A stretch of 64,000 nt of DNA from NCBI RefSeq assembly GCF_002278035.1, contig NZ_CP022603.1, positions 1,921,501 to 1,985,500 on the forward strand, in the 5' to 3' direction. The stretch is from Ochrobactrum quorumnocens (GTDB lineage Bacteria > Pseudomonadota > Alphaproteobacteria > Rhizobiales > Rhizobiaceae). The notes under the pieces were generated by a model, which ran no database searches, was not told where the DNA came from, and worked only from the letters and a program-made list of their open reading frames with translations. How positions within the stretch are numbered: the stretch's first letter is position 1; the number at the start of each line of letters is the position of its first letter. This document shows positions 780 through 23,426 of the stretch, piece after piece. Made by a program: the position numbers and the translations under genes.

Positions 780-1673
780 ATGGAGAAGACGGATTTCAAC
801 CAGTTGACCTGGTTCAGAATCGTTGCCGAGGAGAAGAGCTTCACCAAAGCGGCAGCAAAGATCGGCGTCGCGCAATCGACCCTCAGCTACGCGATCAAAC
901 AGTTGGAAGCCGGCATGGGTATCCGCCTCCTGACGCGCACGACCAGAAACGTCAGCACGACGCCTGCGGGGGAACGGCTCCTCAAGACGATCACCCCTCG
1001 AATGGCCGAGATCGAGGACGAGATCGCCGCGTTGATGACGTTCCGCGACAAACCATCCGGTTCGATCCGGCTGACGCTTTCCGATCATGCGCTGGAAAGC
1101 GTGGTCTGGCCGAACCTGAAGCCGGTGTTACGTGAATATCCTGACATCGCCGTCGAGCTGATCCTGGACAGCACCTTCCGCAATATAGTTGAGGAAGGTT
1201 TTGACGCTGGCGTTCGGCTGGGCGAGAGCGTCGAGAAGGATATGATTGCGGTCAGGATCGGACCGGACTGGCGGTTGGTGGCCGTGGCCTCGCCCGACTA
1301 TCTCGCCAAACATGGCGTGCCGGAACATCCGCAGGATCTAGTCCGGCACCGCTGCATCAACATGCGTCATGAGACTGGCGGCGGCCTTTATGCCTGGGAA
1401 TTCGAGAAAGAGAGACAGGAGCTGCGCGTCCGTGTGTCTGGCCAGCTTACCTTCAACAATTCATACGCCATGATTGATGCAGCGGTTAGTGGTTATGGTA
1501 TCGTCTATGTGCCTGAAAACATCGTCGCGCAGCACATTGCTTCCGGCGAGCTGATCCAAGTTTTGGACGACTGGTCGCCCTTATTCGATGGCTACTTTCT
1601 CTACTATCCCAGCCGCCGCCAGAATCTGCCCGCATTCAAAGTCATCATCGACGCTCTGCGATACCGTGGGTAG
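780..1673 (+). CDS. LysR-family transcriptional regulator
   Basis: This 297-aa protein has the standard LysR build. Residues 1-60 form a winged helix-turn-helix (SFTKAAAKIGVAQSTLSYAIKQLE), followed by a linker helix and a type 2 periplasmic-binding-like effector domain from about residue 90 to the end. The stretch VAVASPDYLAKHG and the C-terminal YYPSRRQNLPAFKVII are typical of the AaeR/PgrR-like subgroup. The ATG at 780 is preceded by a GGGTGGA-type ribosome site. It is transcribed away from the NepI-like transporter, which is its most likely target, and a palindrome sits between them. The inducer cannot be read from the sequence. Confidence 0.92.
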   Translation: MEKTDFNQLTWFRIVAEEKSFTKAAAKIGVAQSTLSYAIKQLEAGMGIRLLTRTTRNVSTTPAGERLLKTITPRMAEIEDEIAALMTFRDKPSGSIRLTLSDHALESVVWPNLKPVLREYPDIAVELILDSTFRNIVEEGFDAGVRLGESVEKDMIAVRIGPDWRLVAVASPDYLAKHGVPEHPQDLVRHRCINMRHETGGGLYAWEFEKERQELRVRVSGQLTFNNSYAMIDAAVSGYGIVYVPENIVAQHIASGELIQVLDDWSPLFDGYFLYYPSRRQNLPAFKVIIDALRYRG

Positions 1674-2079
1674 AGAAATACAACGTCATGCTCTGGCTTA
1701 GAGAAATCATTTACCGCGTCTCAAGAAAATGATCTTGCCGATGGAAAGGCAGTTTTTTGCAGACCAATTTGCTCACAGTCCAAACTGTACCGTTAGTCTT
1801 TCTGGACGAACGGCAGGCTTCGGTCGTAACTCATAGCCTTGGGGACGGGGACCATCAAGGTCGAAAACTGCCGGTAGGCAACGCGCCCGCTTATCAGTCA
1901 TTAAAATGATTGTCTGGAACACCTATAAGCGGACGCCATACCTACAACTCGGTAAATGTCTGTGAGTAGTGGGTACCGGTCGGGCAGCTTTCGGATTGGT
2001 TGGCGATGAAACGACCGTCAGATGTCGCAAAAGTCCCATGAATGTCACGGCTTTTGCGACCGAATTTCCCCTGATTTTT
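1674..2079. other. Gene-poor stretch left of the transposon
   Basis: No convincing gene. Short open frames on the minus strand (for example 1923-2105) match nothing I recognise and have no clear ribosome site. The only structure is a perfect 10-bp inverted repeat, GTCGCAAAAG (2024-2033) with CTTTTGCGAC (2051-2060), separated by 17 bp, just outside the transposon. It may be the end of an older mobile element. Confidence 0.4.
2074..2079. repeat. Target site duplication, left copy (ATTTTT)
   Basis: ATTTTT directly abuts the left terminal repeat and recurs in the same orientation at 6208-6213 immediately after the right one. Six bases fits Tn552-type insertion. The low complexity of the sequence leaves a small chance of coincidence. 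Confidence 0.7.
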
Positions 2080-2133
2080 CTGTGACTTTGATCGCTATTT
2101 GGCACTAATTATCAGCGCTATTTGGCACCGATT
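2080..2133. repeat. Left terminal inverted repeat of the Tn552-like element
   Basis: Matches 52 of 54 bases with the reverse complement of 6154-6207. It contains two direct copies of CGCTATTTGGCAC, as expected for tandem transposase-binding sites at a TniA/Tn552-type end. The dehydratase stop codon lies 17 bp inside it. Confidence 0.88.
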
Positions 2134-2149
2134 GGCGACAGTCTGATGC

Positions 2150-3121
2150 TCATGAGACCTGGGATCTATAAGCGATCCATTTCCTCATATCCTCTGACGC
2201 GATATTGCCTCCACAAACGATCAACCCGACGATTGCGTCAGAGGGAAGCTTCTTAGCCACCTGAATAGCACCTGCGAGGGCGGCTCCCGACGCAAGCTCA
2301 ACCCACTGCCCTGCACTCTCGCCATAACAGAGCATCCCAGCGATGGCCTCGAGATCGGAAACAACTGCAACATTTTCCAGATAGGTCTGGGCGTGATGCA
2401 GCATCAGATCACTGACCATCGGGACACCGAGCGTCGAGATAATCGAGCTTACTGCGATTTCTACAGGAGCTTTGGCGCGTAGTGCCCGATCCATAGAGTT
2501 CGCACCATCGGTCTCGACGCCCCATATCCGAATCTCCGGTTTGATGGCTTTTAAAGCCGTCGCGACACCAGCCAGCATTGCACCACCTCCCACCGCAGCA
2601 AAAACATCAGTTAAAGCCGGGCAGTCCTGGATGAATTCCAAAGCCAATGTCCCGTGACCCTCAGCAATCGCCGTATCGTCGCAGTCATCGAGAATAACAT
2701 AGCCCTGCTGTGCAAGCATTTCCGCGTGCGCAAAAGCCTCTCGAACGTCTACTGTCACGACAACGGGGACGCCAAGCGCCCGGATTTTTGCGATGGACGA
2801 AGCAGGCGCTGTTTGCGGCATAATGATCGTAACATTGGCGTTCAGGCTTGCAGCCGCCTGCGCGACCGCTATCCCGAAATTGCCGCCGCTGACTGCGACA
2901 AAGCGTTGGGAGGGCAGCTGAGATCGAATTTCAGCGAACTTGTTCAAAACACCCCGCGCCTTAAAAGAGCCGCCAACCTGCGTGTTCTCTAATTTGAGGT
3001 AGACTGGCCGCTTGATGATGGAAGACAAACCAGGGCTCTCGATGGTTGCGGTCCGGACGACGTTGTGGTGGATGCGGTCTGCGGCAACACGGATTGCGCT
3101 AGGGTCAATAAGGAATTTCAT
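2150..3121 (-). CDS. PLP-dependent threonine/serine dehydratase-like enzyme (transposon passenger)
   Basis: This 323-aa protein has fold-type II PLP enzyme features. SFKARG places the Schiff-base lysine at residue 54, SGGNFG (78-83) is the substrate-carboxylate loop, a glycine-rich phosphate loop GGGAMLAG lies near 178-185, and CGGN near the C-terminus is the usual ring-nitrogen region. Relatives deaminate L-threonine or L-serine to 2-oxoacids, and some are racemases or dehydratases of hydroxy-aspartate. There is no C-terminal ACT regulatory domain, so it is a catabolic-type enzyme rather than biosynthetic IlvA. It lies between the left transposon end and the resolvase, 41 bp downstream of the resolvase and on the same strand, with no strong ribosome site. 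Such a passenger is odd for this transposon group. Confidence 0.85.
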   Translation of the reverse strand: MKFLIDPSAIRVAADRIHHNVVRTATIESPGLSSIIKRPVYLKLENTQVGGSFKARGVLNKFAEIRSQLPSQRFVAVSGGNFGIAVAQAAASLNANVTIIMPQTAPASSIAKIRALGVPVVVTVDVREAFAHAEMLAQQGYVILDDCDDTAIAEGHGTLALEFIQDCPALTDVFAAVGGGAMLAGVATALKAIKPEIRIWGVETDGANSMDRALRAKAPVEIAVSSIISTLGVPMVSDLMLHHAQTYLENVAVVSDLEAIAGMLCYGESAGQWVELASGAALAGAIQVAKKLPSDAIVGLIVCGGNIASEDMRKWIAYRSQVS

Positions 3122-3162
3122 TTGAACTCGTGGAAATGATGAGGGGAAATCGAAGTCTGCTG

Positions 3163-3753
3163 TTATCTTGACGTGCTATCTGCAGCATGACGAGCAAGCG
3201 TGCGATAGACCGTCGGGCGGGCGATGGAAAACACTTCTGCAAGATCGCTGACCGAATAGTCGCCGGTGTCATACATCCGGCGCAGCTCCTTTTGCTGGCG
3301 ATCGGAGAGCTTCGGCTTTTTGCCTCGCAGCTTTCCCTTGGAACGGGCGACCGCCATTCCTTCGCGCGTCCGCATCCGGATCAAGTCGGCCTCGAACTCG
3401 GCGAAGGTGGCGAGGATGTTGAAGAACAGCTTGCCCATTGGGTCGGACGGATCATGGACGCTCGCCCCGATCTGCAACCTCACACCCCGCGCAGCAAGAT
3501 CATCCCCGATTGTGCGCGCGTCAGGGACAGAGCGTGCGAGACGGTCGAGCTTGGGCACGACGAGCGTATCGCCGCTACGCACCGCCGCAAGCGCTTGGTC
3601 GAGACCGGGCCGGGCTCGATTCGCGCCGGTGAATCCGTGATCGGTATAGATGCGATCCCCCGCGACGCCGAGCTTAATCAAAGTGTCCTTCTGGGCGGCG
3701 AGGTCCTGCTTGTCGGTTGAGCAGCGGGCATAGCCAATGAGCGTGTTCGTCAT
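3163..3753 (-). CDS. Serine resolvase/invertase of the transposon (TniR/BinL-like)
   Basis: This 196-aa small serine recombinase begins MTNTLIGYARCSTDKQD, which puts the nucleophile at Ser12. The catalytic-domain arginines lie in KLDRLARS (68-75), the long E helix follows, and a C-terminal helix-turn-helix (DLAEVFSIARPTVYRTL) binds the res site. Upstream in-frame codons exist, but the start at 3753 gives the family length. It resolves cointegrates formed by replicative transposition, acting with the transposase and ATPase that are transcribed divergently. The 156-bp gap between resolvase and transposase is the natural place for res. Confidence 0.92.
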   Translation of the reverse strand: MTNTLIGYARCSTDKQDLAAQKDTLIKLGVAGDRIYTDHGFTGANRARPGLDQALAAVRSGDTLVVPKLDRLARSVPDARTIGDDLAARGVRLQIGASVHDPSDPMGKLFFNILATFAEFEADLIRMRTREGMAVARSKGKLRGKKPKLSDRQQKELRRMYDTGDYSVSDLAEVFSIARPTVYRTLARHAADSTSR

Positions 3754-3909
3754 ACTTGAATCTGTAACGTAAGGGGCTCCTTCAACGCAAGAAATATAGT
3801 ACCATTCAAATGAGACGAACGTCACTCCACCAAAAGCGGACTTTCCGGCGTGCCGGTAAGTGCGGGGAAAACCGTCCGTTGAACGATCCTCTTTCGGACA
3901 GAGGGATGA
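3754..3909. promoter_or_regulatory. Putative res site and divergent promoters
   Basis: This intergenic stretch between the divergent resolvase and transposase genes includes the related stretches CCGTCCGTTGAACG and CTCTTTCGGACAG (about 3869-3902). In Tn552 and Tn5053 relatives res lies here. I could not define three paired subsites by eye, so this is a positional call. Confidence 0.45.
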
Positions 3910-5357
3910 ATGAGCAAGGCAGAGGATGGCGATGCAGATACCGCGATGTGCATCGCGGTATTGCGCCCCTACATCGACGGCGAAGCCCCACTGACGAAGG
4001 TGGCTGCCGCCGCCGGCATCCCGCTCCGCACCGCCCGGCGCTGGATCGCCCGGATGCGGGAGGGCGGCCCTGCAGCTCTCAGACGCAAGCAGCGCGCGGA
4101 TGCCGGTGATCGGCGGCTTGATGCCAATCTTATAGGATTGGTCGAAGGGTTGGCGCTCACCAGACCGCGCCTGTCGATCGCGACCATTCATCGCCGGATC
4201 TGCAAAGTCGCGGCGGAACGAGGATTGCGGCCGCCGTCCTACGCGAGCGTTCATTCAATCGTCGGCGGGATCGGTCCGGCCACCCTGACACTCGCCCATG
4301 AAGGCGAAGCCGCGTTCCGTGACCGATATGAACTCATCCATCGGCATCGTGCCGAGCGGCCGAACGCAACATGGCAAGCCGATCACACCCAGCTTGACAT
4401 CCTGATCCTCGACGCGAACGGCAAAGAAGTACGGCCTTGGCTTACGACCGTGATCGATGACTATTCCCGCGCCGTCGCGGGATACATGGTATTCCTGGGA
4501 GCCCCATCGGCGCTGAATACGTCGCTGGCACTGCGCCAGGCGATCTGGAGAAAGCCGCAAACCGATTGGCCGGTTTGCGGGATTCCTGACGTGCTGCATG
4601 TCGATCATGGGTCCGACTTCACCAGCATTCATCTCGACCAGGCGTCCGCCGATCTTCGCTTTCAGATCATCTATTCTACCGTTGCCCGTCCCAGGGGCGC
4701 GGCAAGGTCGAGCGGCTGTTTGGCACGATCAATACGGAATTGCTGCCCGAGCTGCCGGGGCACCTTCTCGAAGGAAAAGTCGCCTCCATGCCCCGTTTGT
4801 CATTGCCGGAACTGGACGCGGCGATCGGTACTTTCATCGTGAATATCTACAACATGAGGAAGCACAGCGCGATCGGCGTAGCCCCGATCGAAGCTTGGCG
4901 CGGCAAAGGCTGGCTACCTCGCCTGCCGGACGATCTGGAAGCGCTCGACACATTGTTGGTCATGGTCGCCAAGCCCCGCGTCATCCGCCGGGACGGAATT
5001 CATTTCGAGGGGCTGCGCTTCCTCAGTCCGACACTCGCGGCCTATGTCGGCGAGCCTGTGACCGTCCGCTACGACCCGCGCGACATGGGCGAGATACGGG
5101 TGTTTCACCGGAATGCGTTCCTCTGCCGCGCCGTCAACGCCGAACATACCGATCGGAGCGTCACGCTGAAGGACGTGCAGACCGCTCGCGCCGCCCATCG
5201 CCGCAAAGTGCGGCAGGACATCAAGGAGAAGCGAGGCCGTGTCGCCGATCTGCTGCCAGCTCCATCCGTCCCAAGTTCGGCTCCTGCAAAACCGAAACCG
5301 GAAGCAGCGCTACCAACTCGGCCACGTCTGCGCCTTTATGCCGAGGACAGAGGATGA
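3910..5357 (+). pseudogene. DDE transposase, TniA/Tn552 p480-like, frameshifted
   Basis: Two overlapping frames encode one rve-family transposase. The first part (from the ATG at 3910) has an N-terminal helix-turn-helix (LTKVAAAAGIPLRTARRWI), the first Asp at residue 158 (WQADHTQLD) and the second Asp at 232 (HVDHGSDF). After VARP the frame is lost at about 4690-4692. Inserting one C restores QGRGKVERLFGT, which carries the catalytic Glu at 4710-4712 and continues to the stop at 5355-5357. The repaired length is about 483 aa, matching the 480-aa Tn552 transposase. The break separates the catalytic Glu from both Asp residues, so no active enzyme should be made. The end overlaps the ATPase start as ATGA, so translation was coupled. 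Confidence 0.88.
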
Positions 5358-6169
5358 GAGTGCACCAGGGTGGCGAGCGAACAGGAACCTTCATCGTCAC
5401 CGGGGAGCATCGTCGTTTCTCCGAGTTCGCCGACGCTGTTCGCAAGCACCGCTATATCGGTGTTTGTCACGGCCCTGCCGGCGTCGGAAAAACACTTTCC
5501 GCCCGGCGCTATGCCCGATGGGATGTTGCCCAAACCCTACTGAATGAATGGGGGCCAAGGGAAGAATCGGACGCAAAGGTCTATGCAGCACTCGCCCGGT
5601 CACGTTCGGTCTTCTACACGCCGACAGTCGGGGCCACGCTCGGCGAGCTGCGCAAAGACTTGCCCCGCCTGCTTTCCCGCGTCGATATCTGCGTGGACCA
5701 GCATGTAAGTCCGCCGGGCTGTTCTCCTTCCCACCGCCGTCCCAGCCATGTCGAACTCATCATCGTTGACGAGGCAGAGCGTCTGTCAACGACTGCGCTC
5801 GAATATCTCCGGGACATGTTTGATCGAGAGGGCGTCGGCCTGATCCTAATCGGCATGCCCGGCATTCAGATGAGGCCCCAGCTCTACAGCCGGGTCGGCT
5901 TCGCCCATGCTTACCGGCCCTTGCAGGATGAAGAACTGACATTCGTTCTCACCCGGCGCTGGCGGCAGCTTGGGCTCAACCTCGATGATGCCGACTTTAC
6001 CGACACCAAGGCTATCGCCACGATCGTCCGGATCACCGGCGGCAACTTCCGCCTCGTTCATCGCCTGTTCGTCCAGATCGAGCGCATCCTGCGCATCAAT
6101 GAGCTCAACGCGATCACGGATGACGTGGTGGAGGCGGCGCGATCAGTCCTCGTAATCGGTGCCACTTAG
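5354..6169 (+). CDS. Transposition AAA ATPase, TniB/Tn552 p271-like
   Basis: A 271-aa AAA+ protein begins at the ATG at 5354 that overlaps the transposase stop. Walker A is GPAGVGKT (40-47) and Walker B is LIIVDEAER, with the acidic pair at 139-140. Sensor-like stretches LILIGMPG and a C-terminal lid follow. Proteins of this type (TniB, TnsC, MuB, p271) bind DNA and ATP, choose the target and activate the transposase. A much longer open frame that begins at 4598 in the same register is only an out-of-frame extension through the transposase. The stop codon at 6167-6169 falls inside the right terminal repeat, which explains why the two bases that differ between the ends lie there. Confidence 0.92.
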   Translation: MRVHQGGERTGTFIVTGEHRRFSEFADAVRKHRYIGVCHGPAGVGKTLSARRYARWDVAQTLLNEWGPREESDAKVYAALARSRSVFYTPTVGATLGELRKDLPRLLSRVDICVDQHVSPPGCSPSHRRPSHVELIIVDEAERLSTTALEYLRDMFDREGVGLILIGMPGIQMRPQLYSRVGFAHAYRPLQDEELTFVLTRRWRQLGLNLDDADFTDTKAIATIVRITGGNFRLVHRLFVQIERILRINELNAITDDVVEAARSVLVIGAT

Positions 6170-6207
6170 CGCTGATAATTAGTGCCAAATAGCGATCAAA
6201 GTCACAG
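6154..6207. repeat. Right terminal inverted repeat of the Tn552-like element
   Basis: Inverted copy of 2080-2133. The outer CGCTATTTGGCAC unit is intact and the inner unit is changed at two bases, where the stop codon of the ATPase gene overlaps it. Confidence 0.88.
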
Positions 6208-6213
6208 ATTTTT
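6208..6213. repeat. Target site duplication, right copy (ATTTTT)
   Basis: Direct repeat of 2074-2079. Removing the element and one copy gives a continuous sequence CCCCTGATTTTTCAGTGTCG across the site. Confidence 0.7.
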
Positions 6214-6323
6214 CAGTGTCGGCGACTTGGCGGCAAATTCAGGAGTGTTGCGACAGGTACGAACGGGATCGAAGCACCGTTGAAGTCGCGGGGCTAGCGA
6301 ACCTGCGCGCCCACACAGGCCGC

Positions 6324-7040
6324 TCACTTGATTTTTGGAATGCGTCGAGCCAACCAAGCGCCCCAGAACAGGCTGGCAAAGAACCGAAGTGGCTCCTCGA
6401 AACCGGCTTCCGTTAGCAAGGAGATTACCGCTTCCTCCGACCTGGGCGGCTCCGCACCTTGCAGAATCTTGTTCATCTTAGACTGGACTTCTTCCGGTCC
6501 TGCGTCGTTCATTCGCCAACGGGTGGCCCAAGCTGCCATGAGCAACGGCTGGGAAGCGTAAGCTCGGTAATTCCCTGCGATGACCAAGGGCGCGCCCGGC
6601 TTCAACCGCATTGCGATTTGCGCCAGAATATCCTGCTTCATCGCATCTCCCGGCAGATGGTGCAATACGCCGATCATGATCGCTGCGTCGAATGATGGGG
6701 CTGAATCGATGTCAGCGACGGTGCCATGAACAGTCTCCACCCGGTCGGACACTCCGGCCTCGACCAGATGTGTGCGTGCGAGATCCAGCATCGGCGGCGA
6801 CGGATCGACGGCGACAAAGGACCATTCCGGCTCCAGCCGCGCGGCGGCAATGATTTCACCCGCCGTTCCTCCGGCTCCGACAATCAGAACTCGGGCCTGC
6901 TTTCTTTCACCCAGGGCGGCAGACAACATACAAGCGGAAAGCTCATGGCAGGCATCATATCCGGCTAACGCGATCCGGCTCTGGCGTGCATACTCCTCGG
7001 CGCGGGAGGCGTCGAATTTGGCGGCGGAATCCGATGTCAT
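6324..7040 (-). CDS. Class I SAM-dependent methyltransferase
   Basis: This 238-aa cytoplasmic protein has a Rossmann methyltransferase core. Motif I is VLIVGAGGTAGE (51-62), an acidic residue follows at the end of strand 2 (VAVDPSPPML), and FDAAIMIGVLHHLPG is the post-motif region common to small-molecule methyltransferases of the UbiE/type 11-12 group. The C-terminus (SLFWGAWLARR) is less typical, and the substrate cannot be told. The ATG at 7040 follows an AGGAAATC ribosome site. It is divergent from an AraC regulator at 7118, which probably controls it. Confidence 0.85.
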   Translation of the reverse strand: MTSDSAAKFDASRAEEYARQSRIALAGYDACHELSACMLSAALGERKQARVLIVGAGGTAGEIIAAARLEPEWSFVAVDPSPPMLDLARTHLVEAGVSDRVETVHGTVADIDSAPSFDAAIMIGVLHHLPGDAMKQDILAQIAMRLKPGAPLVIAGNYRAYASQPLLMAAWATRWRMNDAGPEEVQSKMNKILQGAEPPRSEEAVISLLTEAGFEEPLRFFASLFWGAWLARRIPKIK

Positions 7041-7117
7041 ATGATTTCCTGTCGGTCGTTTCAGCTGTGGGCTGGTGAAAGGATAGACGATTTAGGATCA
7101 TGATGTAGAATAAGTAC

Positions 7118-7882
7118 ATGATCGAAAATTCTAATATCGAGCGAAAGCATGATCGACTGATCGCTTTTCTAAAAGCCTTTACCCTCAGCGTAACGCATTG
7201 TGAATCCGCGAAGGAAGCGAATCTTCTAATCGTCAACGTCAATGGTTCCGGTGGACCGACCCATCTGCTTTACCGGGCGCGATCCACAGCCGCGCTGCCG
7301 GACGGGGCCGCCTTGTTCGCTGCCGCCAAGGTGGATTTTGGCGGCAGCGCAAATCCGTTGGTCGGCGCGTTGCCAGATGAGTTGTGCTTCTCACTGACCG
7401 ACGAGCCGCAGTTGCTTTGGCTGTCCGAGTTGATCATGGCCGAGGTCGAAGTCACTCGCTGCGGTGGCGGTACGATTCAGGCGCGGCTATGCGAGATCGT
7501 CGTCGTGCTGGCGATCCGCAAAGCGATAGCGATCGGCACTGTCGATGCCGGGTTGCTGGCGGGGCTTGCTCATCCCAAACTTCACGTAAGCCTTGTCGCC
7601 ATGCACGACGATCCGGTGCGGCGTTGGCAGATTGCGGACTTGGCTGCCATCGCGGGAATGTCGCGCGGGCAATTCATTGTAGCCTTCAAGCAAACCGTTG
7701 GTCAGTCGCCGGGAGCGTATCTGAATGGCTGGCGTTTGGCGTTGGGACGTGCCGAACTGCGCTCTGGACGGAGCGTCAAGTCTGTCGCCGTCATGGTAGG
7801 CTTCGGTAGTGCCGCCGCCTTTTCCCGCGCGTTTTCGCGCAAATTCGGTTGCCCCCCGATCCAGAGCAAAGCGCAAAAATGA
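7118..7882 (+). CDS. AraC-family regulator with cupin-type N-terminal domain
   Basis: This 254-aa protein has an N-terminal ligand-binding segment (about 1-150) resembling the cupin_6 group, including PTHLLYRARSTAALPDGAALF and LPDELCFSLTDE. It is followed by a two-helix-turn-helix AraC domain (about 165-250): WQIADLAAIAGMSRGQFIVAFKQTVGQSPGAYLNGWRL is split here as IADLAAIAGMSRGQF and GQSPGAYLNGWRL, with SVAVMVGFGSAAAFSRAFSR as the second unit. Relatives often govern stress or efflux genes. It diverges from the methyltransferase with a 77-bp shared promoter region. An 11-bp-stem inverted repeat follows at 7956-7987. Confidence 0.88.
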   Translation: MIENSNIERKHDRLIAFLKAFTLSVTHCESAKEANLLIVNVNGSGGPTHLLYRARSTAALPDGAALFAAAKVDFGGSANPLVGALPDELCFSLTDEPQLLWLSELIMAEVEVTRCGGGTIQARLCEIVVVLAIRKAIAIGTVDAGLLAGLAHPKLHVSLVAMHDDPVRRWQIADLAAIAGMSRGQFIVAFKQTVGQSPGAYLNGWRLALGRAELRSGRSVKSVAVMVGFGSAAAFSRAFSRKFGCPPIQSKAQK

Positions 7883-7955
7883 CACGCAGGAGACTGCATT
7901 TGTTGCCCCCGATAACTGTGCTCCTTGCGAGTTAAGCGGCAGACACGAGATAATA

Positions 7956-7987
7956 CGCTGACTTTTACGACGTATCAAAAGTCAGCG
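7956..7987. repeat. Perfect inverted repeat (hairpin) after the AraC gene
   Basis: CGCTGACTTTT (7956-7966) pairs fully with AAAAGTCAGCG (7977-7987) across a 10-nt loop. It could end transcription of the AraC gene, although no long T run follows. It could also be a leftover mobile-element end next to the decayed genes. Confidence 0.5.
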
Positions 7988-8012
7988 ACTGGTGGCTGCT
8001 TCTCAACGCTGC

Positions 8013-8400
8013 CTATGTCGCTAATCGAAACTTGCCGCCCTCTATAGCCTTGATCATCATGCTCAGCGTTTCATGACGGGTTTGTCCATCGGTAGGCGGA
8101 ACATGCTGCTCTAGCGATGAGAATTGTTGAAGGGGTGCGGTGATAGGCTCTGGGTCGGTCAACGTGTCGCCACCACGTTCCTGACAGCGATGAATGGCCG
8201 CATCTAACGGCGGCCGGTACAACGTAGTGGAGTGGCGCGGCGACTGTCTTGAACGGTTGCAGAAACCAAGGGCCGATTTCCATCCACAACGACAAAATAA
8301 CCGCCCTTGGCATAGCCTTCGGCAACACCTGCGAGCACATCCACGACCACGGCGTAACCGAAAGCCCCGGATCGCTCTGTCTGCTGCGCAAAACCACGTA
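8013..8400 (-). pseudogene. Decayed P-loop kinase/AAA-type ATPase, 3' part
   Basis: Read on the minus strand, three frames form one protein-like track: EGYAKGGYFVVVDG (about 8330-8282), then EIGPWFLQPFK (from about 8280) and LHYVV, then PPLDAAIHRCQERGGDTLTDPEP through EGGKFRLAT to the stop at 8013. Shifts lie near 8280 and 8215. The pattern resembles small ATP-binding proteins related to chloramphenicol phosphotransferase and AAA-type kinases. The N-terminal half with the P-loop is missing, because the frame runs directly into autotransporter sequence at about 8390-8405. Function is lost. Confidence 0.6.
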
Positions 8401-9440
8401 TTGACCACGCTCGACACGTTCCATGAGCGCTTGGGCGAACTGCGCTCAGAAGATATGCAGGATGGCTTTCATGCCTGGATGCGCGGTATCGGCAAGACCG
8501 GTTCCTATTCGCCAAAGAGCATCACTGGTTATAATGGCCATGGGTTTGACATGACCACGGCCGGTGTCCAGATCGGTGCTGACTATTCAAAGGGCGATGT
8601 CTTTGTGGCTGGCGATAAGCTCACAGTCGGCATCTTTGGAGAATATGTGAATTCGAGCTTCGATGTTCGTGGCCGCACAGCCGATGGTTCGATATCCTCA
8701 AAAGGACTTGGTGGTTATGTGACCTGGCAGCAGAAAGCTCCAACTGACCGTAAGCCTGGAACGGGCGCCTATGTAGATGCCGTCGTCAAGCAAGACTGGC
8801 TCGACTTTGGCGTGAATGCCAAGTCTGTATCGGGTTTTGATCTGCGAAATGGCTATAAGGGCAAGGCAACCTCCGCGTCTATTGAAGCAGGCTATGGCTT
8901 TGATCTTGGCAACAATGTTGTGCTGCAGCCACAGGCTCAGCTGACCTGGTCAAAGATCAAGGCAGACAGCTTCACTGATCCCTACGGCATTGCTGTCCAT
9001 GGTCAGGAAGCGGAATCGCTGATCGGTCGTGTTGGTGTGCGTCTTGAAAAGACCTTCTATTTCGGTGGTGAAGAAGAGACGCTTGAAGCTGCCCCCGCCA
9101 AGCCGATGAGCCTGCTAAGAACGCGAAGGGCAAGAAGGGTGCAAAGGCAAAGACGGTTATTGCTCCTCTGCCGGAGGCTCCTAAAAAGAAGAAGTTCGTG
9201 AAGTCCGTTACGACCTATGCGGATGCTAACGTCAGGCGTGAGTTCAAGGGCAAGAATGGCCTTGTGGCTTCAGGCACTGGCATCGGTAATGATATGGGTG
9301 GCACACGTTATGATGTCGGTGTTGGCGTGGTTGCCCGTGTTTCGGAAAATGTCAGCCTGTTCGGCCGCGGTGCTGTCGAGTTCGGTGGTTCCACCAATGC
9401 CGCTGGCAAGGTTTCGGGTGGTCTCAAGATTACCTGGTAA
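8386..9440 (+). pseudogene. Autotransporter beta-barrel remnant, frameshifted
   Basis: From about 8386 the plus strand reads VLTTLDTFHERLGELRS, the usual lead into a type Va autotransporter translocator, then typical barrel strands (AGVQIGADYSKGD, GEYVNSSFDVRGR, ASIEAGYGFDLGNN, GRVGVRLEKTFYF). Near 9106-9110 one base appears lost. The other frame continues with an Ala/Lys-rich linker, then TYADANVRREF and VSGGLKITW, the correct aromatic barrel terminus. The passenger domain, signal peptide and start are absent, so only the outer-membrane domain of the former surface protein survives. The upstream neighbour is an oppositely oriented decayed kinase, so a deletion or rearrangement joined them. 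Confidence 0.85.
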
Positions 9441-9470
9441 TTGATCCGAGACTTTATTCTCAAGATAAAA

Positions 9471-9505
9471 AAGGGCGCTCTACCCAATGGGGAGCGCCCT
9501 TTTTC
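9471..9505. terminator. Rho-independent terminator
   Basis: AAGGGCGCTC (9471-9480) pairs with GAGCGCCCTT (9492-9501), followed by TTTTC. It ends the former autotransporter gene 30 bp after its stop and shows the locus was once a normal transcription unit. Confidence 0.85.
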
Positions 9506-9622
9506 TTACCCGGACGACTTCGAACACTGCATGACTAGTGCAGCAGGAAACGTCATAACGGGAGGTGTCCATTAATTGGTAATGGACTTGTTCAGTTTCA
9601 AGACCTCAAAGATCGAAACGGC

Positions 9623-10882
9623 TTACATAACGGCCAAGGCATCAAGAAGGACCGTTTCAGTTCCGGTCTTACCGGACTTGAAAAAGAACCGGGTATGATG
9701 ATTATCATCACTCTCGCAAAATCCCGTCCCGATACCGTTATCAGGAAACGCGCGAAGCCGCTGCAAGCCAAGACGCTTTATGACGCCTCCGGATGTTTCG
9801 CCACCCACCACAATAAGCTTGTCTATGCCAAGTTCGGAAACGGCTGCAGCCAGTTCCGATATCAGCCGCTCGCCTTTTTCACTGGCGCCGCGAACACCAA
9901 GCTCGGCCTGAATTTCCTTCACGCGCGTATCGTGTACTGTAGTGGATATAAGATAAGGCTGATTTCCATGGTGAGCTTTCGCCCATTGCATTGATTTTGA
10001 AACCATCTCTTCAACGCTACCATCCTTTATGAGGTCAAGCGTTAACACTGGATGCTTTGCGGCAAAGACAGCAATCTGCCCATCTGCAATAGGTCCAACG
10101 GTTCCAACCAGTACGGCTGCGGTGCCGTTGCTCGGTGATGGCGGCGCAACAGATATGGCTGGTTTGGGTGCGAAACGGTCGATCCCAAGCTGGATGAGAA
10201 CGGCGTCAGAACTGACCATTGTCGGTTGCGCTCTTGCCAGTTCTGCAGCGATTTTGACATCGCCATCATCGCTTGCATCGACGACGCAGTAGCAGGTGCC
10301 ACCTCTTGCCATCGCATCAAGATGTGCTTGTGCGGCCTCTCTGCCTTTGAGCAGAACGGAGTGGGGCAGAAGGCCGACAGGTTCGGCTGTCTGCTTGCCG
10401 ATGAAGCGTACCATGTCTGGATCGTTCATCGGGGTGGCAGGGTCATAGCGTTTGACAGATTCGGAGATGAGACGGCTTCGGTAGAAGAGATAGCCTTGAT
10501 GTACCGTAGCATTGAACTTTGGGAAGCCGGGGCAGAACAATAGGCTGCTTGGATTGTAGCGCGCACGCAATGTGTCAGCAGCAGGCCCCACGTTTCCCTG
10601 TTCCGTTGAATCGAAACTGGCGCAGACTTTGTAAATGACCTGATCACATCCAATCGCATCGAAAGCGCCGGCGGCGCGGGTAATCTGCAAACATGCTTCT
10701 TCCGGATCGGCGAGGCGTGTTCTTCCAGCCCATATAACGACAGTTTCACCGTCACATTCCCGGATTGCGTCGATTTCAGTTACTACCGCAGTTTTAATTC
10801 CTGCTGTCTCGTAATAGGCTGCGACCATCAACGCGCCAGTCATGTCGTCGGCAATGATACCCAGAGTGGCTGTGTTCCCCAT
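9623..10882 (-). CDS. otnK: Four-carbon acid sugar kinase (3-oxo-tetronate kinase family)
   Basis: This 419-aa protein is of the DUF1537/four-carbon acid sugar kinase family. It opens with GIIADDMTGA (8-17), the N-terminal motif that binds the acid sugar. The central YKVCASFDSTEQGNVGP and the C-terminal nucleotide-binding part with VVGGETSGGV and GIGTGFCE are family hallmarks. OtnK phosphorylates 3-oxo-tetronate (from D-erythronate or L-threonate) at O4. The start at 10882 is chosen because AGGA lies 5-6 nt ahead, whereas the ATG four codons upstream lacks one. It is divergent from the class II aldolase-like gene at 11139, which supplies the next step, so the pair supports the otn assignment. 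A TGAAATTTAATTCCA motif sits 45 bp upstream. Confidence 0.85.
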   Translation of the reverse strand: MGNTATLGIIADDMTGALMVAAYYETAGIKTAVVTEIDAIRECDGETVVIWAGRTRLADPEEACLQITRAAGAFDAIGCDQVIYKVCASFDSTEQGNVGPAADTLRARYNPSSLLFCPGFPKFNATVHQGYLFYRSRLISESVKRYDPATPMNDPDMVRFIGKQTAEPVGLLPHSVLLKGREAAQAHLDAMARGGTCYCVVDASDDGDVKIAAELARAQPTMVSSDAVLIQLGIDRFAPKPAISVAPPSPSNGTAAVLVGTVGPIADGQIAVFAAKHPVLTLDLIKDGSVEEMVSKSMQWAKAHHGNQPYLISTTVHDTRVKEIQAELGVRGASEKGERLISELAAAVSELGIDKLIVVGGETSGGVIKRLGLQRLRAFPDNGIGTGFCESDDNHHTRFFFKSGKTGTETVLLDALAVM

Positions 10883-10927
10883 TTTTATCCTCATATCAGG
10901 CCATATCCAACGCTATTTCTGTGATAA

Positions 10928-10942
10928 TGAAATTTAATTCCA
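10928..10942. promoter_or_regulatory. Copy of the TGAAATTWAATTYCA operator-like motif (otnK)
   Basis: TGAAATTTAATTCCA differs by one base from the perfect palindrome at 31075-31089 and by one from the copy at 22577-22591. It lies upstream of otnK on the minus strand. Shared control by the IclR regulator at 30185 is inferred. Confidence 0.5.
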
Positions 10943-10998
10943 AACAAGTATCATTTTGATAGACCACGTCAATTACCGGGATTATGAAGTTGGCGCAC

Positions 10999-11092
10999 AC
11001 TCCGAAAAGTGTGAAGCGGTTTTCGGATAAGATGTGTGTAAAAACGAACAATGAGAGCACCGATCTGATTTAATCAGATCGAAACGCGCTCT
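10999..11092. repeat. Composite intergenic repeat with two hairpins
   Basis: CCGAAAA (11002-11008) pairs with TTTTCGG (11020-11026), and CGATCTGATT-T-AATCAGATCG (11061-11081) is a perfect 10-bp inverted repeat bracketed by AGAGC and GCTCT. This kind of sequence (CCGAAAA...GGTTTTCGGATAAGAT and GATCTGATT...) resembles repeats I know to be scattered between genes in Brucella and rhizobia, so I prefer a repetitive element over a dedicated otnC operator. Confidence 0.55.
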
Positions 11093-11138
11093 ACGCGACA
11101 TCAAAAATTCTTGGCTGCAAACAGATGGGGAATACACG

Positions 11139-11798
11139 ATGCCAACCGACTACGATCAGAACCTTACTGCGCGCCGCGCAATTGTGGATGCTATGCGCCA
11201 TATGGAAAACAAGGGTTTTAATCACGGTAGCAGCGGCAATATCAGCATTCGTGAGGGCGAACATGTTTGGGTGACGCCAACGGGTGCCACATCGCTTATG
11301 AAGCCCGAAGATATGAGCCTTGTGTCGGTCGAAGGCGAGCATCTGGCAGGCAAGGTTCCATCCAGCGAATGGCGCATTCACACAGAGATCATGCGCAATC
11401 ACCCCGAAGCGGGTGCCGTGATCCACTCGCACGCAGATAATTGCGTTGCGCTCTCTTGCTTGCGTAAACCGTTGCCAGCTTTCCATTACATGATCGCTTC
11501 CTTTGGCGGCAGTAAGGTTCCATGCGCTGACTATCGTGTGTTCGGGTCTGATGCTCTGGCCTATGAAATCGTTCGTGCTATGGGCAACCATCGCGCCTGT
11601 CTGATGGCAAGTCATGGGATGGTCGTGTGGGGCCGGGATATGGCTCACGCGACGCTTCTGGCTGAAAAGCTTGAAACTCTGGCGCGTCAGTATATTTTGG
11701 CCTGTCAGGTCGGCGATCCGGCTATCCTGAGCGAAAACGAGCTTGATGAAGTGCGTGCACGCTATGGATATTATGGCAGCAAACCGATGCCTCGTTGA
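11139..11798 (+). CDS. otnC: Class II aldolase/adducin family protein, 3-oxo-tetronate 4-phosphate decarboxylase-like
   Basis: This 219-aa protein has the fuculose-phosphate aldolase fold. GSSGNISIR (30-38) is the phosphate loop, Glu77 is the catalytic acid in SSEWRIH, and the zinc ligands are His96 and His98 (HSHADN) with His159 (ASHGMV). OtnC decarboxylates 3-oxo-tetronate 4-phosphate to dihydroxyacetone phosphate and CO2. L-fuculose-phosphate aldolase is the main alternative, but pairing with the acid sugar kinase favours the otn role. The oxidoreductase that makes 3-oxo-tetronate (LtnD or PdxA2 type) is not in the window. A GGGGAA ribosome site precedes the ATG. Confidence 0.82.
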   Translation: MPTDYDQNLTARRAIVDAMRHMENKGFNHGSSGNISIREGEHVWVTPTGATSLMKPEDMSLVSVEGEHLAGKVPSSEWRIHTEIMRNHPEAGAVIHSHADNCVALSCLRKPLPAFHYMIASFGGSKVPCADYRVFGSDALAYEIVRAMGNHRACLMASHGMVVWGRDMAHATLLAEKLETLARQYILACQVGDPAILSENELDEVRARYGYYGSKPMPR

Positions 11799-11811
11799 TA
11801 GGCAATCGCGA

Positions 11812-11838
11812 CAGGCCCGAATGAGACATTCGGGCCTG
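11812..11838. terminator. Bidirectional terminator between otnC and the amidase-like gene
   Basis: CAGGCCCGAAT (11812-11822) and ATTCGGGCCTG (11828-11838) form an 11-bp stem with a 5-nt loop between convergent genes. T runs on either side are short. Confidence 0.7.
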
Positions 11839-11852
11839 AATTGATTTACCAG

Positions 11853-13532
11853 TTACGCAGCAGCTGGTCCCGTTTCCTGAAACCGGTCGAGCACATTGCG
11901 GGTAATGGTGGTTGTGTAGGCGCAGTTGCGCTTTAGGCCCATCACCCACTCACAAAGCCCTGCGGTTACCACTTCCCCGTCACCCTGCTTCATTGATACG
12001 AGCATTCCAGCGCCATGGGCCAATCGCTTTCGCGCGGATTCATAGCCATCAGGAGCCATTTCGCAGATGCCTTGCAGATCGCTATCCCGAACGTAGTAAC
12101 GATGTCCCTGGCCGTCGAGTTCGTACTCGTAGATCGAAGCCGGGGTCATGGCCAGAATCTCGATCTTCTCGGTCGGCACACCATGTTCTTCCGCGGCATA
12201 TGGGAAGCCATTCTTGAACGAATAATTGAGGCCATCGACTTCGTAGCCAAAGATTTGCGCTTCATGGCCGAAGATGTCGGCATAGCGCAGATGTGTGCCT
12301 TCGAAGATCCAATGCTCGGGTTGATAGACAGTAAGTCCGCGTGAGCCCCGTGGAGAAAAGCCACCCCAACTGCCATACATTCCGTTTTCACCGTTAACAC
12401 CAACCGTGGATGCGCCGGGCCAGTTTACGGCGCCGCTTGCCCAGTTTGCCGTACACAAGTGTTTCTGATCGGTCTGCATGATGGGGTCTTGCGTGGGTGC
12501 TTTGGTCTTCCAGCACACTTGCGTCTGCCCATCGTTCTCAAGCCGGATTTGCCAAAGGAAGTTACCACCAAAGCGAGCGAGATTCCCGCCGCGTGCGACA
12601 AACCCCTCGACGGTCTTGCGCATGTCCCACGACCAATATTCATCATGCCCAACGGTCACAAGACAATTATAATCATCGAGGATTGATGGGTTATAATGGA
12701 GATCGGTTTGAGTGATGTAGTCGATCTGGTAGCCTGCTGCTTCAGCCCAAGTCACGAAATAGCGCTCGTATTGTGCATAGCCAGCAGAAGAATAAAACTG
12801 TGAGAAGCCCATCGTATAACCCCATTCTTTAGATGGGTAACGGGTTGCATCGCCCATGTCCTGCCAGACTGGATTACAGACGCGCGCAGCTCCCTCCGGT
12901 AGCCAGCACATCCCCTTGGACCATGGACGGCGCAGGCTCAAGATAGGTGAACCCTCGTTCTTGTTGGGACCCCAAGTGCCAAAATAGTGGTTGGCACCGC
13001 CCCAATCATTATAGGCTGTCCAGGTGCCGGTTGCGAACATGAGGAGAATGCGACCCGAGCGGGTTTTCTTCGTGGGGCGCACGACGACAAAGTGATGCTG
13101 GACGAAGCGTTCGCCATCCGGACGCATACACGTCGAGACAACGCGATAAAAACCGGAACGAGCATCGTCTGGAATCTTCCAGCGATAGAGAACCGGCCAG
13201 TCGCAACCATCCATATAGGCGGTTTCCGATGTTTTGGTGAAGCTTCCGGGAAGGTCGAAAGCTTCGTCCATCATCTGGGGCTCATGGCTGTCCCGATATA
13301 TCTGGATCGACCATGTCTTGGCTGTGGTGGAGCCATGAAATTCGACTGTTTCGCCGGGATCGTAAGACATTTTTTCGGTATAGACGAAGACTTCGGGAAG
13401 GTTCGGGTCTTCACGCGGAAACTGATAACGATAATCGGAGAGGAAATGCTCGTCCGCATAGCCTTTGCGAACGGCCCAAGGCTTGATCGCGTGTGGTCCC
13501 ATCTCAGGAAATTTAAACTTGTCGCGGGGCAT
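11853..13532 (-). CDS. N,N-dimethylformamidase large-subunit-like hydrolase
   Basis: This 559-aa protein is related to the C-terminal domain of the N,N-dimethylformamidase large (beta) subunit. An N-terminal beta-sandwich (about 30-160) is followed by the core with TAYNDWGGANHYFGT and TVGHDEYWSWDMR. In the characterised Paracoccus enzyme the mononuclear iron uses a His and a Glu spaced HxE, as I recall. HDE at residues 296-298 fits, so a metal amidase acting on a small N-substituted amide is likely. No small subunit gene is adjacent. The start at 13532 follows a strong AGGAGAGAG site, whereas an in-frame ATG seven codons earlier has none. It is last in a minus-strand operon after the aminotransferase and a GntR gene. 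Confidence 0.78.
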   Translation of the reverse strand: MPRDKFKFPEMGPHAIKPWAVRKGYADEHFLSDYRYQFPREDPNLPEVFVYTEKMSYDPGETVEFHGSTTAKTWSIQIYRDSHEPQMMDEAFDLPGSFTKTSETAYMDGCDWPVLYRWKIPDDARSGFYRVVSTCMRPDGERFVQHHFVVVRPTKKTRSGRILLMFATGTWTAYNDWGGANHYFGTWGPNKNEGSPILSLRRPWSKGMCWLPEGAARVCNPVWQDMGDATRYPSKEWGYTMGFSQFYSSAGYAQYERYFVTWAEAAGYQIDYITQTDLHYNPSILDDYNCLVTVGHDEYWSWDMRKTVEGFVARGGNLARFGGNFLWQIRLENDGQTQVCWKTKAPTQDPIMQTDQKHLCTANWASGAVNWPGASTVGVNGENGMYGSWGGFSPRGSRGLTVYQPEHWIFEGTHLRYADIFGHEAQIFGYEVDGLNYSFKNGFPYAAEEHGVPTEKIEILAMTPASIYEYELDGQGHRYYVRDSDLQGICEMAPDGYESARKRLAHGAGMLVSMKQGDGEVVTAGLCEWVMGLKRNCAYTTTITRNVLDRFQETGPAAA

Positions 13533-13580
13533 AGTGAGCTCTCTCCTAGGCATTTATAAAATGTCGTTTTCGATCTGCGT

Positions 13581-14285
13581 CTAATGTCCAATTTCAGTAT
13601 CGGCATCGACATGATTGTTTTGTTCGTATTCTTGCAGATGCTTTATCAAAGCAGTGCCGCCCTCAATCAAATCAAGCTGGACCGCCAGACGCAGAGCGTA
13701 ACTATCGCGCGCCTTCAAAGCGGCAAGAATATTTTCGTGTTGATGACGCCCTGGATATGTTGGCTTTGCCGAGGGGTATTGTTCGGATGCCAAGGGTCCA
13801 ACCCTGATCCAGAGGCTTTCAAGCACATCGATAAGATGCGCCATGCCGCTTTGCTTATAGAGCGCAAAATGGAAATCCGAGTTGATCTGCAAGGCTGCTG
13901 GCCAATCCCCGGTGCGCTCGGCTTCGGTCAACTCACGATGGATAGTCTCCAGCTTGGCGATGGTTTCATCTGAGATATTCGTCAGCGCGTGTTCCGCAGC
14001 GAGAGGCTCAAGGACGAGCCGCATTGCACGGATTTCTTTGTATTCTGCAAGGCTCAAGCGTCGTACACGAATATAAAAGCGCGGTTTGATTTCAATCGCG
14101 CCTTCGCGTGACAATTGCATCAGCGCTTCGCGGACAGGCGTTTCCGATGTGCCCAGCGACAAAGCCAGTTGACGAACCTTGAACCGCTGATGCGGTTTGA
14201 ACTGCGCGCGCAACAGCCCCGATTTGAGCTGCTGATACACGATGTCAGAAAGGTTGTCCCGATCGTCGCCCGCCTGTTCGCTCAC
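13581..14285 (-). CDS. GntR-family regulator, FCD/FadR subgroup (copy 1)
   Basis: This 234-aa protein has an N-terminal winged helix (FKVRQLALSLGTSETPVREALMQLSREGAIEIKPR, here cited as its core LALSLGTSETPVREALMQL) and an all-helical FCD effector domain. Candidate metal ligands lie in NSDFHFALYKQ and HQHENILAAL. FCD regulators sense small carboxylates or amines and usually repress neighbouring genes. It lies 9 bp after the aminotransferase stop and 48 bp before the dimethylformamidase-like gene, so all three are probably one operon. It is about two-thirds identical by eye to the regulator at 19736-20464, with identical recognition-helix residues. Confidence 0.92.
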   Translation of the reverse strand: MSEQAGDDRDNLSDIVYQQLKSGLLRAQFKPHQRFKVRQLALSLGTSETPVREALMQLSREGAIEIKPRFYIRVRRLSLAEYKEIRAMRLVLEPLAAEHALTNISDETIAKLETIHRELTEAERTGDWPAALQINSDFHFALYKQSGMAHLIDVLESLWIRVGPLASEQYPSAKPTYPGRHQHENILAALKARDSYALRLAVQLDLIEGGTALIKHLQEYEQNNHVDADTEIGH

Positions 14286-14294
14286 GCTTTGTCC

Positions 14295-15545: not shown

Positions 15546-15593
15546 TGGTTGTCTCCCATTTGACGACGTTTTTACGCTCGTCACGTCGAATTA

Positions 15594-15793
15594 TGATATA
15601 TCAAAAATGATCCTGACGATGAAGATATGTCAAGATGGAATCCGTAAAGATGCGTAAATATTATTATAGTAGCGTACTTCATGGGTCATTTAGCGAAAAT
15701 ATCGGGGTCTGGCCGCGAAAAGCGGAGATTTCCGAAAGAAAACAGCAGGAAGGCTGCAGCCTGGCCGGTAAGTTCGATAAATTTGATATATCA
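15594..15793. promoter_or_regulatory. Divergent promoter region with two TGATATATCA palindromes
   Basis: Exact 10-bp palindromes TGATATATCA lie at 15594-15603 and 15784-15793, one near each of the two divergent genes. They resemble the short palindromes bound by FCD-type GntR proteins. A related half-site, ATATATCA, precedes the second GntR gene at about 20508-20515. Both GntR proteins have the same recognition helix, so they may compete for these sites. Confidence 0.55.
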
Positions 15794-15856
15794 TTCTAGA
15801 CAAAGAAGTGGAATGCGGGTTAAGCTCATCCAACAACAAAAACATCAGGGGAAAGC

Positions 15857-16933: not shown

Positions 16934-16937
16934 GCCG

Positions 16938-18604: not shown

Positions 18605-18629
18605 ATAAAACAATAGATGTGAGGGAAAC

Positions 18630-19679: not shown

Positions 19680-19701
19680 GCAATGCTTCAAGCAATCTCC
19701 G

Positions 19702-19731
19702 GCCGACGCTCTTGTGGCGTCGGCTTTTGTT
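19702..19731. terminator. Rho-independent terminator of the Pot-type operon
   Basis: GCCGACGC (19702-19709) pairs with GCGTCGGC (19717-19724), followed by TTTTGTTT. It separates the importer operon from the convergent GntR gene. Confidence 0.85.
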
Positions 19732-19735
19732 TGGA

Positions 19736-20464: not shown

Positions 20465-20530
20465 CAATAGACTCCAATTGCCGGACACATCCTTGTCGAG
20501 CGGCCGAATATATCAATTCAATGTCACTAC

Positions 20531-21319: not shown

Positions 21320-21322
21320 GGG

Positions 21323-22465: not shown

Positions 22466-22573
22466 AAGTTGCCCCTTCGCACACGATTTCAACAAAGATG
22501 AAACACGTCGCGTTTTGCAGAAATATCCTATTGCTAAGGGAATGTTTCATAGATTAAAGTTCGAAACAATATA

Positions 22574-22594
22574 AAATGAAATTAAATTCCATTT
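22574..22594. promoter_or_regulatory. Operator-like near-palindrome between divergent beta-oxidation operons
   Basis: TGAAATTAAATTCCA (22577-22591) with AAA and TTT flanks matches 19 of 21 bases with the perfect palindrome at 31072-31092 in front of the IclR gene. It sits between the divergent acyl-CoA dehydrogenase and enoyl-CoA hydratase genes, which suits control of both. Confidence 0.6.
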
Positions 22595-22642
22595 GTAGTT
22601 TTGGCTGTGATTGGAGTTGGTTCAGGGGAAGTTAGGGAGAGG

Positions 22643-23425: not shown

Positions 23426-23426
23426 G

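What the first reader, a model, noticed from the sequence alone, without database searches (positions are those of the whole stretch)
2074..6213. Complete Tn552-like transposon in an alphaproteobacterium carrying a PLP dehydratase as passenger
The element has 54-bp ends (52 matches), a 6-bp direct duplication, a resolvase, a roughly 480-aa transposase and a 271-aa ATPase, so the Tn552 plan is met in detail. The passenger is a threonine/serine dehydratase-like gene rather than a resistance gene. A mobile amino-acid catabolic or detoxifying trait would be unusual for this group.
Basis: partly seen in the sequence, partly recalled or inferred. Interest (0 to 1): 0.7.

Follow-up and report, generated by a model that had tools for sequence, protein, structure and literature searches.

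The report
Tn552-like transposon carrying a dehydratase gene
A 4.1-kb jumping element of a known kind has inserted into an alphaproteobacterial chromosome carrying one amino-acid-breakdown gene, but its own transposase gene is interrupted by a frameshift, so this copy probably cannot move by itself.

Summary
The element is real. Inverted ends at 2081-2133 and 6154-6206 match at 51 of 53 bases, an 8-bp direct repeat (GATTTTTC) flanks it, and the ends lie nowhere else in the genome. It holds a serine resolvase with a res-like region, a DDE transposase, a 271-aa ATPase and a 323-aa PLP (PALP-family) enzyme. The repeat is 8 bp, not 6.

Tn552-group membership holds: staphylococcal homologues (480 and 271 aa) are 43-44% identical. 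Single metabolic passengers are ordinary here: 7 of 11 relatives with both ends found carry genes between the left end and the resolvase, e.g. epoxide hydrolase, M1 peptidase, SulP transporter. None of the 20 relatives read has this dehydratase. The dehydratase family is rare and patchy, with no match at E<=1e-40 in 34 other genomes of the genus. 18 of 19 testable relatives sit beside a second recombinase gene or remnant; this copy does not. The empty site could not be tested because the right flank is not conserved.

The parts
2073..2080 (.). left copy of the 8-bp flanking direct repeat GATTTTTC
2081..2133 (+). left terminal inverted repeat (TGTGAC...), with two copies of CGCTATTTGGCAC at 2093-2105 and 2116-2128
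2150..3121 (-). passenger: 323-aa PALP-family PLP enzyme, serine/threonine dehydratase-like
   Evidence: PF00291 3.9e-65; best solved-structure matches named L-threonine dehydratase (8y1j) and L-serine dehydratase/L-threonine deaminase (4h27); invariant SFKARG (K54) and SGGNFGIA in 18 sequences
3163..3753 (-). serine resolvase, 196 aa
   Evidence: PF00239 and PF02796; DNA 81-83% identical to the best plasmid matches
3754..3909 (.). putative res region between resolvase and transposase; blocks TCTGTAACGTAA and CCGTCCG-TGAACGATCCTCTTTCGGAC shared with L038, L039, L095 and partly L089
   Evidence: alignment
3910..4698 (+). transposase, first part: HTH and rve (DDE) core
4692..5357 (+). transposase, second part, in another frame, with Mu-transpos_C domain; the frameshift lies at about 4692-4698
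5354..6169 (+). AAA ATPase, 271 aa (PF13401)
6154..6206 (-). right terminal inverted repeat, overlapping the end of the ATPase gene
6207..6214 (.). right copy of the 8-bp flanking direct repeat GATTTTTC

Best explanation
A unit transposon of the Tn552 group inserted between a conserved MFS-LysR pair and strain-specific DNA. Shown: paired ends with repeated binding-site-like motifs, an 8-bp direct repeat, a transposase/ATPase/resolvase gene set, a frameshift in the transposase, and a dehydratase-like gene inside the ends. Inferred from the family: the transposase with the ATPase would insert a copy replicatively, and the resolvase would resolve the cointegrate at res. The passenger lies 41 bp downstream of the resolvase on the same strand, so it is probably co-transcribed with it. 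It most likely encodes a PLP ammonia-lyase for L-serine, L-threonine or a similar 3-hydroxy amino acid, giving a 2-oxo acid and ammonia or removing an inhibitory amino acid. The frameshift makes transposition of this copy unlikely unless a transposase is supplied in trans; the passenger ORF is open.
For: Ends and direct repeat. Pfam domains. ATPase 43% and transposase 44/43% (two parts) identical to a staphylococcal 271-aa/480-aa pair. Paired ends that begin TGTG or TGTA in 11 of 18 relatives searched, two of them marginal by score. Flanking direct repeats in 4 of 10 relatives checked: 5 bp in the script for L038 (6 bp, CTTATG, if its end is set one base inward), 7 bp in L041, 8 bp in L039 and L093. 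Frameshift against 7 of 7 relatives. No match to the dehydratase at E<=1e-40 in the 34 kin. No similar transposase, ATPase or resolvase at E<=0.01 in 21 other loci with a match to the dehydratase family. GC 55.0% for the dehydratase against 61.9% for the transposase-ATPase stretch.
Against: No empty site was found, so insertion rests on ends plus direct repeat. This copy has no recombinase gene or remnant beside it, unlike 18 of 19 relatives (annotation; remnants). The direct repeat is longer than the 6 bp given for Tn552, and 6 of 10 relatives show a repeat of only 0-4 bp. The substrate is unassigned. No sigma-70-like promoter was found in 2000-4000.
Confidence: 0.85

Rival explanations
1. 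The transposase frameshift is a sequencing or assembly error and the element is fully active.
For: The break lies among short runs of C and G. The resolvase, ATPase and passenger frames are open. The sequencing method is unknown.
Against: There is no second copy to compare. The genome is 4 contigs and 99.99% complete. A frameshift that splits the same gene into two overlapping ORFs is reported for Tn552 in all pMW2-like staphylococcal plasmids (PMC3276174, passages), so real breaks of this kind occur.
Confidence: 0.3
2. The dehydratase is not a passenger of the transposon but a resident gene beside which the ends happen to lie.
For: Relatives of the gene occur without this transposon in other genomes.
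Against: Its 3' end lies 16 bp from the inner edge of the left end, which matches the right end at 51 of 53 bases. The 34 kin have no match at E<=1e-40, including those with the left flank. Relatives carry other genes in the same slot.
Confidence: 0.04
3. The PLP enzyme has another activity, such as a racemase or a biosynthetic elimination/replacement enzyme.
For: PALP is broad; serine and aspartate racemases and cysteine synthases are among the solved structures matched. On a Klebsiella plasmid a 58% homologue lies beside an alcohol dehydrogenase and a LysR gene.
Against: The best structure matches are dehydratases, and the top NCBIfam hits are ammonia-lyases or dehydratases. The phosphate loop reads SGGNFG, with Gly where serine racemase has its re-face Ser; this last point is recalled, not from a call.
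Confidence: 0.2

Closest known systems
Tn552 of staphylococci (bla transposon)
   Same: Transposase about 480 aa and ATPase 271 aa in the same order, a serine resolvase gene, flanking direct repeats. Tn552's genes (p271, p480, bin, blaI/R1/Z), 6-bp repeats and about 120-bp inverted repeats are from PMC3276174 (passages). The protein comparison is with L087 of Staphylococcus equorum.
   Different: 43-44% protein identity; 53-bp ends; 8-bp repeat; dehydratase instead of bla genes; no resolvase gene beside the site; chromosomal. In L087 the resolvase points towards the transposase, here away from it.
Tn552-like elements on alphaproteobacterial plasmids (Qipengyuania citrea L038, Sphingobium baderi L039, Acetobacter pasteurianus L082, Methylobacterium aquaticum L041)
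   Same: ATPase 66.7-75.6%, transposase 56-66%, same gene order, similar ends. Resolvase DNA 81-82% for the Qipengyuania and Sphingobium elements.
   Different: Transposase in one ORF; cargo an M1 peptidase (L039), a short hypothetical gene (L038) or none (L041, L082); a resident recombinase gene beside the element.
Tn5053/Tn402 family
   Same: rve-type transposase, ATPase, resolvase (recalled); res-site hunters (PMC7765201, title and start of abstract in a listing).
   Different: Tn5053 is listed as tniABQR (PMC8865565, passage); no tniQ-like gene was found inside the ends here.
Tn7-like transposons with metabolic cargo
   Same: PMC8865565 places Tn552 in the Tn7 family (passage). Metabolic genes are reported as cargo of Tn7-like transposons (PMC8649781, passages).
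   Different: That survey began with HMMs for core Tn7 proteins; in its main text Tn552 occurs once, for its end repeats, and 'dehydratase' not at all.
L-serine/L-threonine dehydratases (8y1j; 4h27, recalled as the human enzyme)
   Same: Match over most of the length, PLP-lysine motif SFK-RG, glycine-rich loop.
   Different: Only 113.5 and 106.5 bits; no NCBIfam cut-off met among those shown; Pfam shows the PALP domain alone.

Membership tests
Tn552 group | DDE transposase with rve and Mu-transpos_C domains, about 480 aa | tested here: met
   Both domains present, in two frames because of a frameshift; a 480-aa staphylococcal homologue aligns to both parts. As a working protein: not met.
Tn552 group | AAA ATPase (p271 type) directly downstream of the transposase | tested here: met
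   271 aa, 43% identical over 270 columns to a 271-aa staphylococcal homologue.
Tn552 group | Serine resolvase with res | tested here: met
   PF00239 + PF02796; intergenic blocks shared with L038, L039, L095 and partly L089, but not with L041 or L081. Resolution itself not tested.
Tn552 group | Terminal inverted repeats with repeated transposase-binding sites | tested here: met
   53-bp ends, each with two CGCT(ATT or AAG)TGGCAC repeats; shorter than the about 120 bp given for Tn552. Binding not tested.
Tn552 group | 6-bp target duplication | tested here: inconclusive
   8-bp direct repeat here; 6, 7, 8 and 8 bp in the 4 of 10 relatives with a clear repeat. 10-bp repeats around Tn552 in a sin res site are also reported.
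Tn552 group | Insertion in a resolvase res site (a preference) | tested here: not met
   Against 15 recombinase proteins the flanks 1-2078 and 6209-16000 give nothing better than E 0.10.
Tn5053/Tn402 family | tniQ as a further transposition gene | tested here: not met
   Only the four gene products were recognised inside the ends.
Serine/threonine dehydratase (PALP) | PLP-binding lysine and phosphate-binding loop | tested here: met
   K54 in SFKARG and SGGNFGIA invariant in 18 sequences; that K54 binds PLP is by alignment and recall.
Serine/threonine dehydratase (PALP) | Membership in a named NCBIfam equivalog | tested here: not met
   37 NCBIfam matches; all 25 shown are below cut-off.
Serine/threonine dehydratase (PALP) | Lyase activity on L-Ser or L-Thr | not testable with these tools
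   Needs an enzyme assay.

The most novel reading that the evidence does not exclude
Tn552-group transposons outside the staphylococci work as shuttles for single metabolic genes: the stretch between one end and the resolvase is an exchangeable slot, refilled by recombination at res sites after insertion beside resident resolvases, and the dehydratase family seen here owes its patchy spread across Brucella, Rhizobium, Pseudomonas, Serratia and Kushneria genomes partly to such carriers.
Probability: 0.2. Interest if true: 0.55.

Novelty: new member of a known kind. Interest (0 to 1): 0.3.

Why it matters
It adds an amino-acid lyase to the cargo of a transposon group known mainly for beta-lactam resistance. 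The comparison shows relatives in alphaproteobacteria, actinobacteria and an acidobacterium with single metabolic or transport genes in one slot, and with resident recombinase genes beside them. How the slot is filled can be tested by comparing insertions with and without cargo. If the frameshift is real, this copy is a relic that left a gene behind rather than an active element.

Tried and rejected
Empty site: flanks 1500-2078 and 6209-6800 were searched in all 35 genus genomes (own included). 12 of 35 match the left flank, only the own one over its whole length; for the right flank there is the own genome and one 33-base hit. Five kin stretches (two cut short by contig ends) were compared: left synteny ends at window 1645-1874 and 6207-24000 has no match in them. 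Untestable here.

A lost res site at the target: the left flank holds a dyad TGTCGCAAAAG...CTTTTGCGACC at 2023-2061. The pattern occurs once in the own genome and in none of 34 kin. A shortened pattern occurs in none of 384 other class genomes. A spaced version of the same dyad and a symmetrised one, which the window itself would not match, gave nothing in viral contigs. The flanks have no plasmid match at E<=0.1. Left unexplained.

The same dehydratase as cargo elsewhere: 20 genome loci and one plasmid locus show no transposase, ATPase or resolvase of this kind. The closest proteins, P0122 (89%) and P0123 (86%), lie on contigs I could not fetch, so a second carrier is not excluded.

ATPase in sampled genomes: of 150 (own included) one other, weak hit; of 385 (own included) 13 others, 2 of them strong.

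Papers: no paper holds 'threonine dehydratase', 'transposon' and 'passenger gene' together. 'Tn552' + 'alphaproteobacteria' gave 6 papers, none with a title on such elements. A search for serine dehydratase, transposon, Ochrobactrum and horizontal gene transfer gave 124 papers with 3 of the 4 terms; the 8 listed have no title on this. Subscription papers are not in the library. A Tn552-like transposon with inverted repeats is mentioned for a Pseudomonas putida plasmid (PMC3894933, one passage).

Promoters, Rfam families and tRNAs: none found.

Limits of the relatives survey: I read 20 of 719 plasmid records, picked by hand from best and spread rows, not at random. Ends were sought in 18 of the 20 (L085 has no left DNA; L040 was tried only, without result; L081 was searched but has no DNA beyond the ATPase). 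They were found in 11; L086 and L093 are marginal (30 and 28 against null maxima of 27), though L093 has an 8-bp repeat. L081 is left out of the neighbour count. L092 was skipped in the repeat check. No control was run for how often any plasmid gene has a recombinase neighbour.
Full report
Observation. The inverted pair is in the sequence: 55 nt at 2079-2133 and 6154-6208, 96% complementary. Relatives' ends begin with TGTG or TGTA; with the same start here the ends are 2081-2133 and 6154-6206, 51 of 53 matching. The score of 100 against at most 27 in 15 shuffles makes chance very unlikely. Each end has two copies of CGCT(ATT or AAG)TGGCAC, 23 bp apart. The end has only these two places in the 5.6-Mb genome.

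Genes. From left to right: a 323-aa PALP enzyme (minus strand), a 196-aa serine resolvase (minus), a 156-bp gap with blocks shared with some relatives and probably res, a transposase (plus), and a 271-aa AAA ATPase (plus). The transposase is split. With seven relatives' proteins of 470-499 aa as queries, a second frame starts at window 4692 in all seven; the first frame stops at 4698 for two and runs on to 4779-4821 for five. The staphylococcal 480-aa protein breaks in the same place. A similar split of p480 is reported for pMW2-like staphylococcal plasmids (PMC3276174, passages).

What it is. An element on a Staphylococcus equorum plasmid (L087) has a 480-aa transposase and a 271-aa ATPase; the window's proteins are 44/43% (two parts) and 43% identical. 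The description of Tn552 (p271, p480, bin, 6-bp repeats, about 120-bp ends, res sites as hotspots) is from PMC3276174 (passages). No tniQ-like gene was recognised inside the ends, which separates it from Tn5053 (tniABQR in a table of PMC8865565, passage).

Relatives. tblastn of the ATPase finds 719 of 72,556 plasmid records, 546 of them with at least 80% coverage. I read 20. Paired ends were found in 11 of the 18 searched. Seven of the 11 have genes between the left end and their own resolvase: an M1 metallopeptidase (L039), a short hypothetical gene (L038), thiC with a hypothetical gene and an IS (L086, marginal ends), an epoxide hydrolase (L089), a SulP transporter with a MerR regulator (L090), a HAD hydrolase (L092), and LysR with a hypothetical gene (L093, marginal score, 8-bp repeat). 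Four have none (L041, L082, L088, L094). None of the 20 records shows an annotated PALP gene in the stretch read. In 18 of 19 testable records a second recombinase gene, or a remnant found by tblastn (L085, L095), lies next to an end or, where ends were not found, next to the ATPase gene. Weak cases within the 18: L092 (a short partial gene about 360 bp off), L093 (a tyrosine recombinase) and L094 (an integrase pointing towards the element). L096 has none right of its ATPase; L081 could not be judged. No background rate was measured. The window copy has no such neighbour: 15 recombinase proteins against 1-2078 and 6209-16000 give nothing better than E 0.10.

The passenger. The top NCBIfam hits are ammonia-lyases and dehydratases, with no cut-off met among the 25 shown. 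The best PDB sequence matches are named L-threonine dehydratase and L-serine dehydratase/L-threonine deaminase. SFKARG and SGGNFGIA are invariant in 18 sequences. The family is sparse: a scan of 84,980 species genomes with two peptide patterns gave 20 loci, 16 of them at 46% identity or more. Of 35 genus genomes only the own one has it at E<=1e-40, although proteins 86% and 67% identical are named for Brucella pituitosa and B. pseudogrignonensis. The tree puts the window with the unnamed protein P0122 and B. pituitosa, while B. pseudogrignonensis pairs with Pseudomonas gingeri (97/84), as horizontal transfer would; deep and long branches are unsure. Neighbours differ between the groups looked at: a sodium/bile-acid-symporter-family gene and an FAD oxidoreductase in Rhizobium (L006), ecotin and an Asp-Al_Ex permease in Serratia (L010), a 3-hydroxyisobutyrate-dehydrogenase-like gene and a DUF3100 protein in Kushneria (L005). 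Its GC is 55.0%, against 61.9% for the transposase-ATPase stretch and 53.9% for the window. I read it as a stand-alone lyase for L-serine, L-threonine or a similar amino acid; the substrate is inferred.

Site. The left neighbours (MFS, LysR) are conserved in part of the genus, but synteny stops at window 1645-1874 in the stretches compared. The right neighbour, a methyltransferase at 6324-7040, has only 26-39% identical matches in the kin. An empty site was therefore not available. The host is probably in the genus Brucella in the wide sense: RpiB matches PDB 5ifz at 146 of 150 residues by my count of the alignment. That 5ifz is from Brucella, and that the genes at 60-64 kb are an erythritol operon, is recalled.

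How it works. Shown: ends, direct repeat, gene set, broken transposase, passenger inside. Inferred from the family: replicative transposition by transposase plus ATPase, cointegrate resolution by the resolvase at res, co-transcription of resolvase and passenger (41-bp gap, same strand). This copy likely cannot transpose alone.

Verdict. A new member of a known kind, with a passenger not seen in the 20 relatives read. The paper searches named in Tried and rejected found no description of it in the open-access library held. Interest is modest; the cargo slot is the part worth following.

Noticed in passing
window 2023-2061: A 39-bp imperfect dyad TGTCGCAAAAG...CTTTTGCGACC just left of the element, with TTGCGACA again right of it; once in the own genome and in none of 34 kin. 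Possibly a remnant recombination site.
   Followed up: partly
L085 851-3130: In Methylobacterium radiotolerans pMRE25 one annotated CDS covers both the transposase and the ATPase part, an apparent fusion.
   Followed up: no
L086 2426-4234: A Tn552-like element on a Dinoroseobacter shibae plasmid may carry thiC (thiamine synthesis) as cargo; related ATPase copies lie on several plasmids of the species. Ends are marginal.
   Followed up: partly
window 9623-11798: A protein with SBD_N/NBD_C domains (PF07005, PF17042) near an aldolase-like ORF; looks like a four-carbon acid sugar catabolic cluster (recalled).
   Followed up: no
window 8371-9444: 82.7% identical to an autotransporter-domain gene on a plasmid of Ochrobactrum sp. 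LM19 (H86).
   Followed up: no
L042 3828-6969: On a Klebsiella pneumoniae plasmid a 58% homologue of the dehydratase sits beside an alcohol dehydrogenase and a LysR gene.
   Followed up: no
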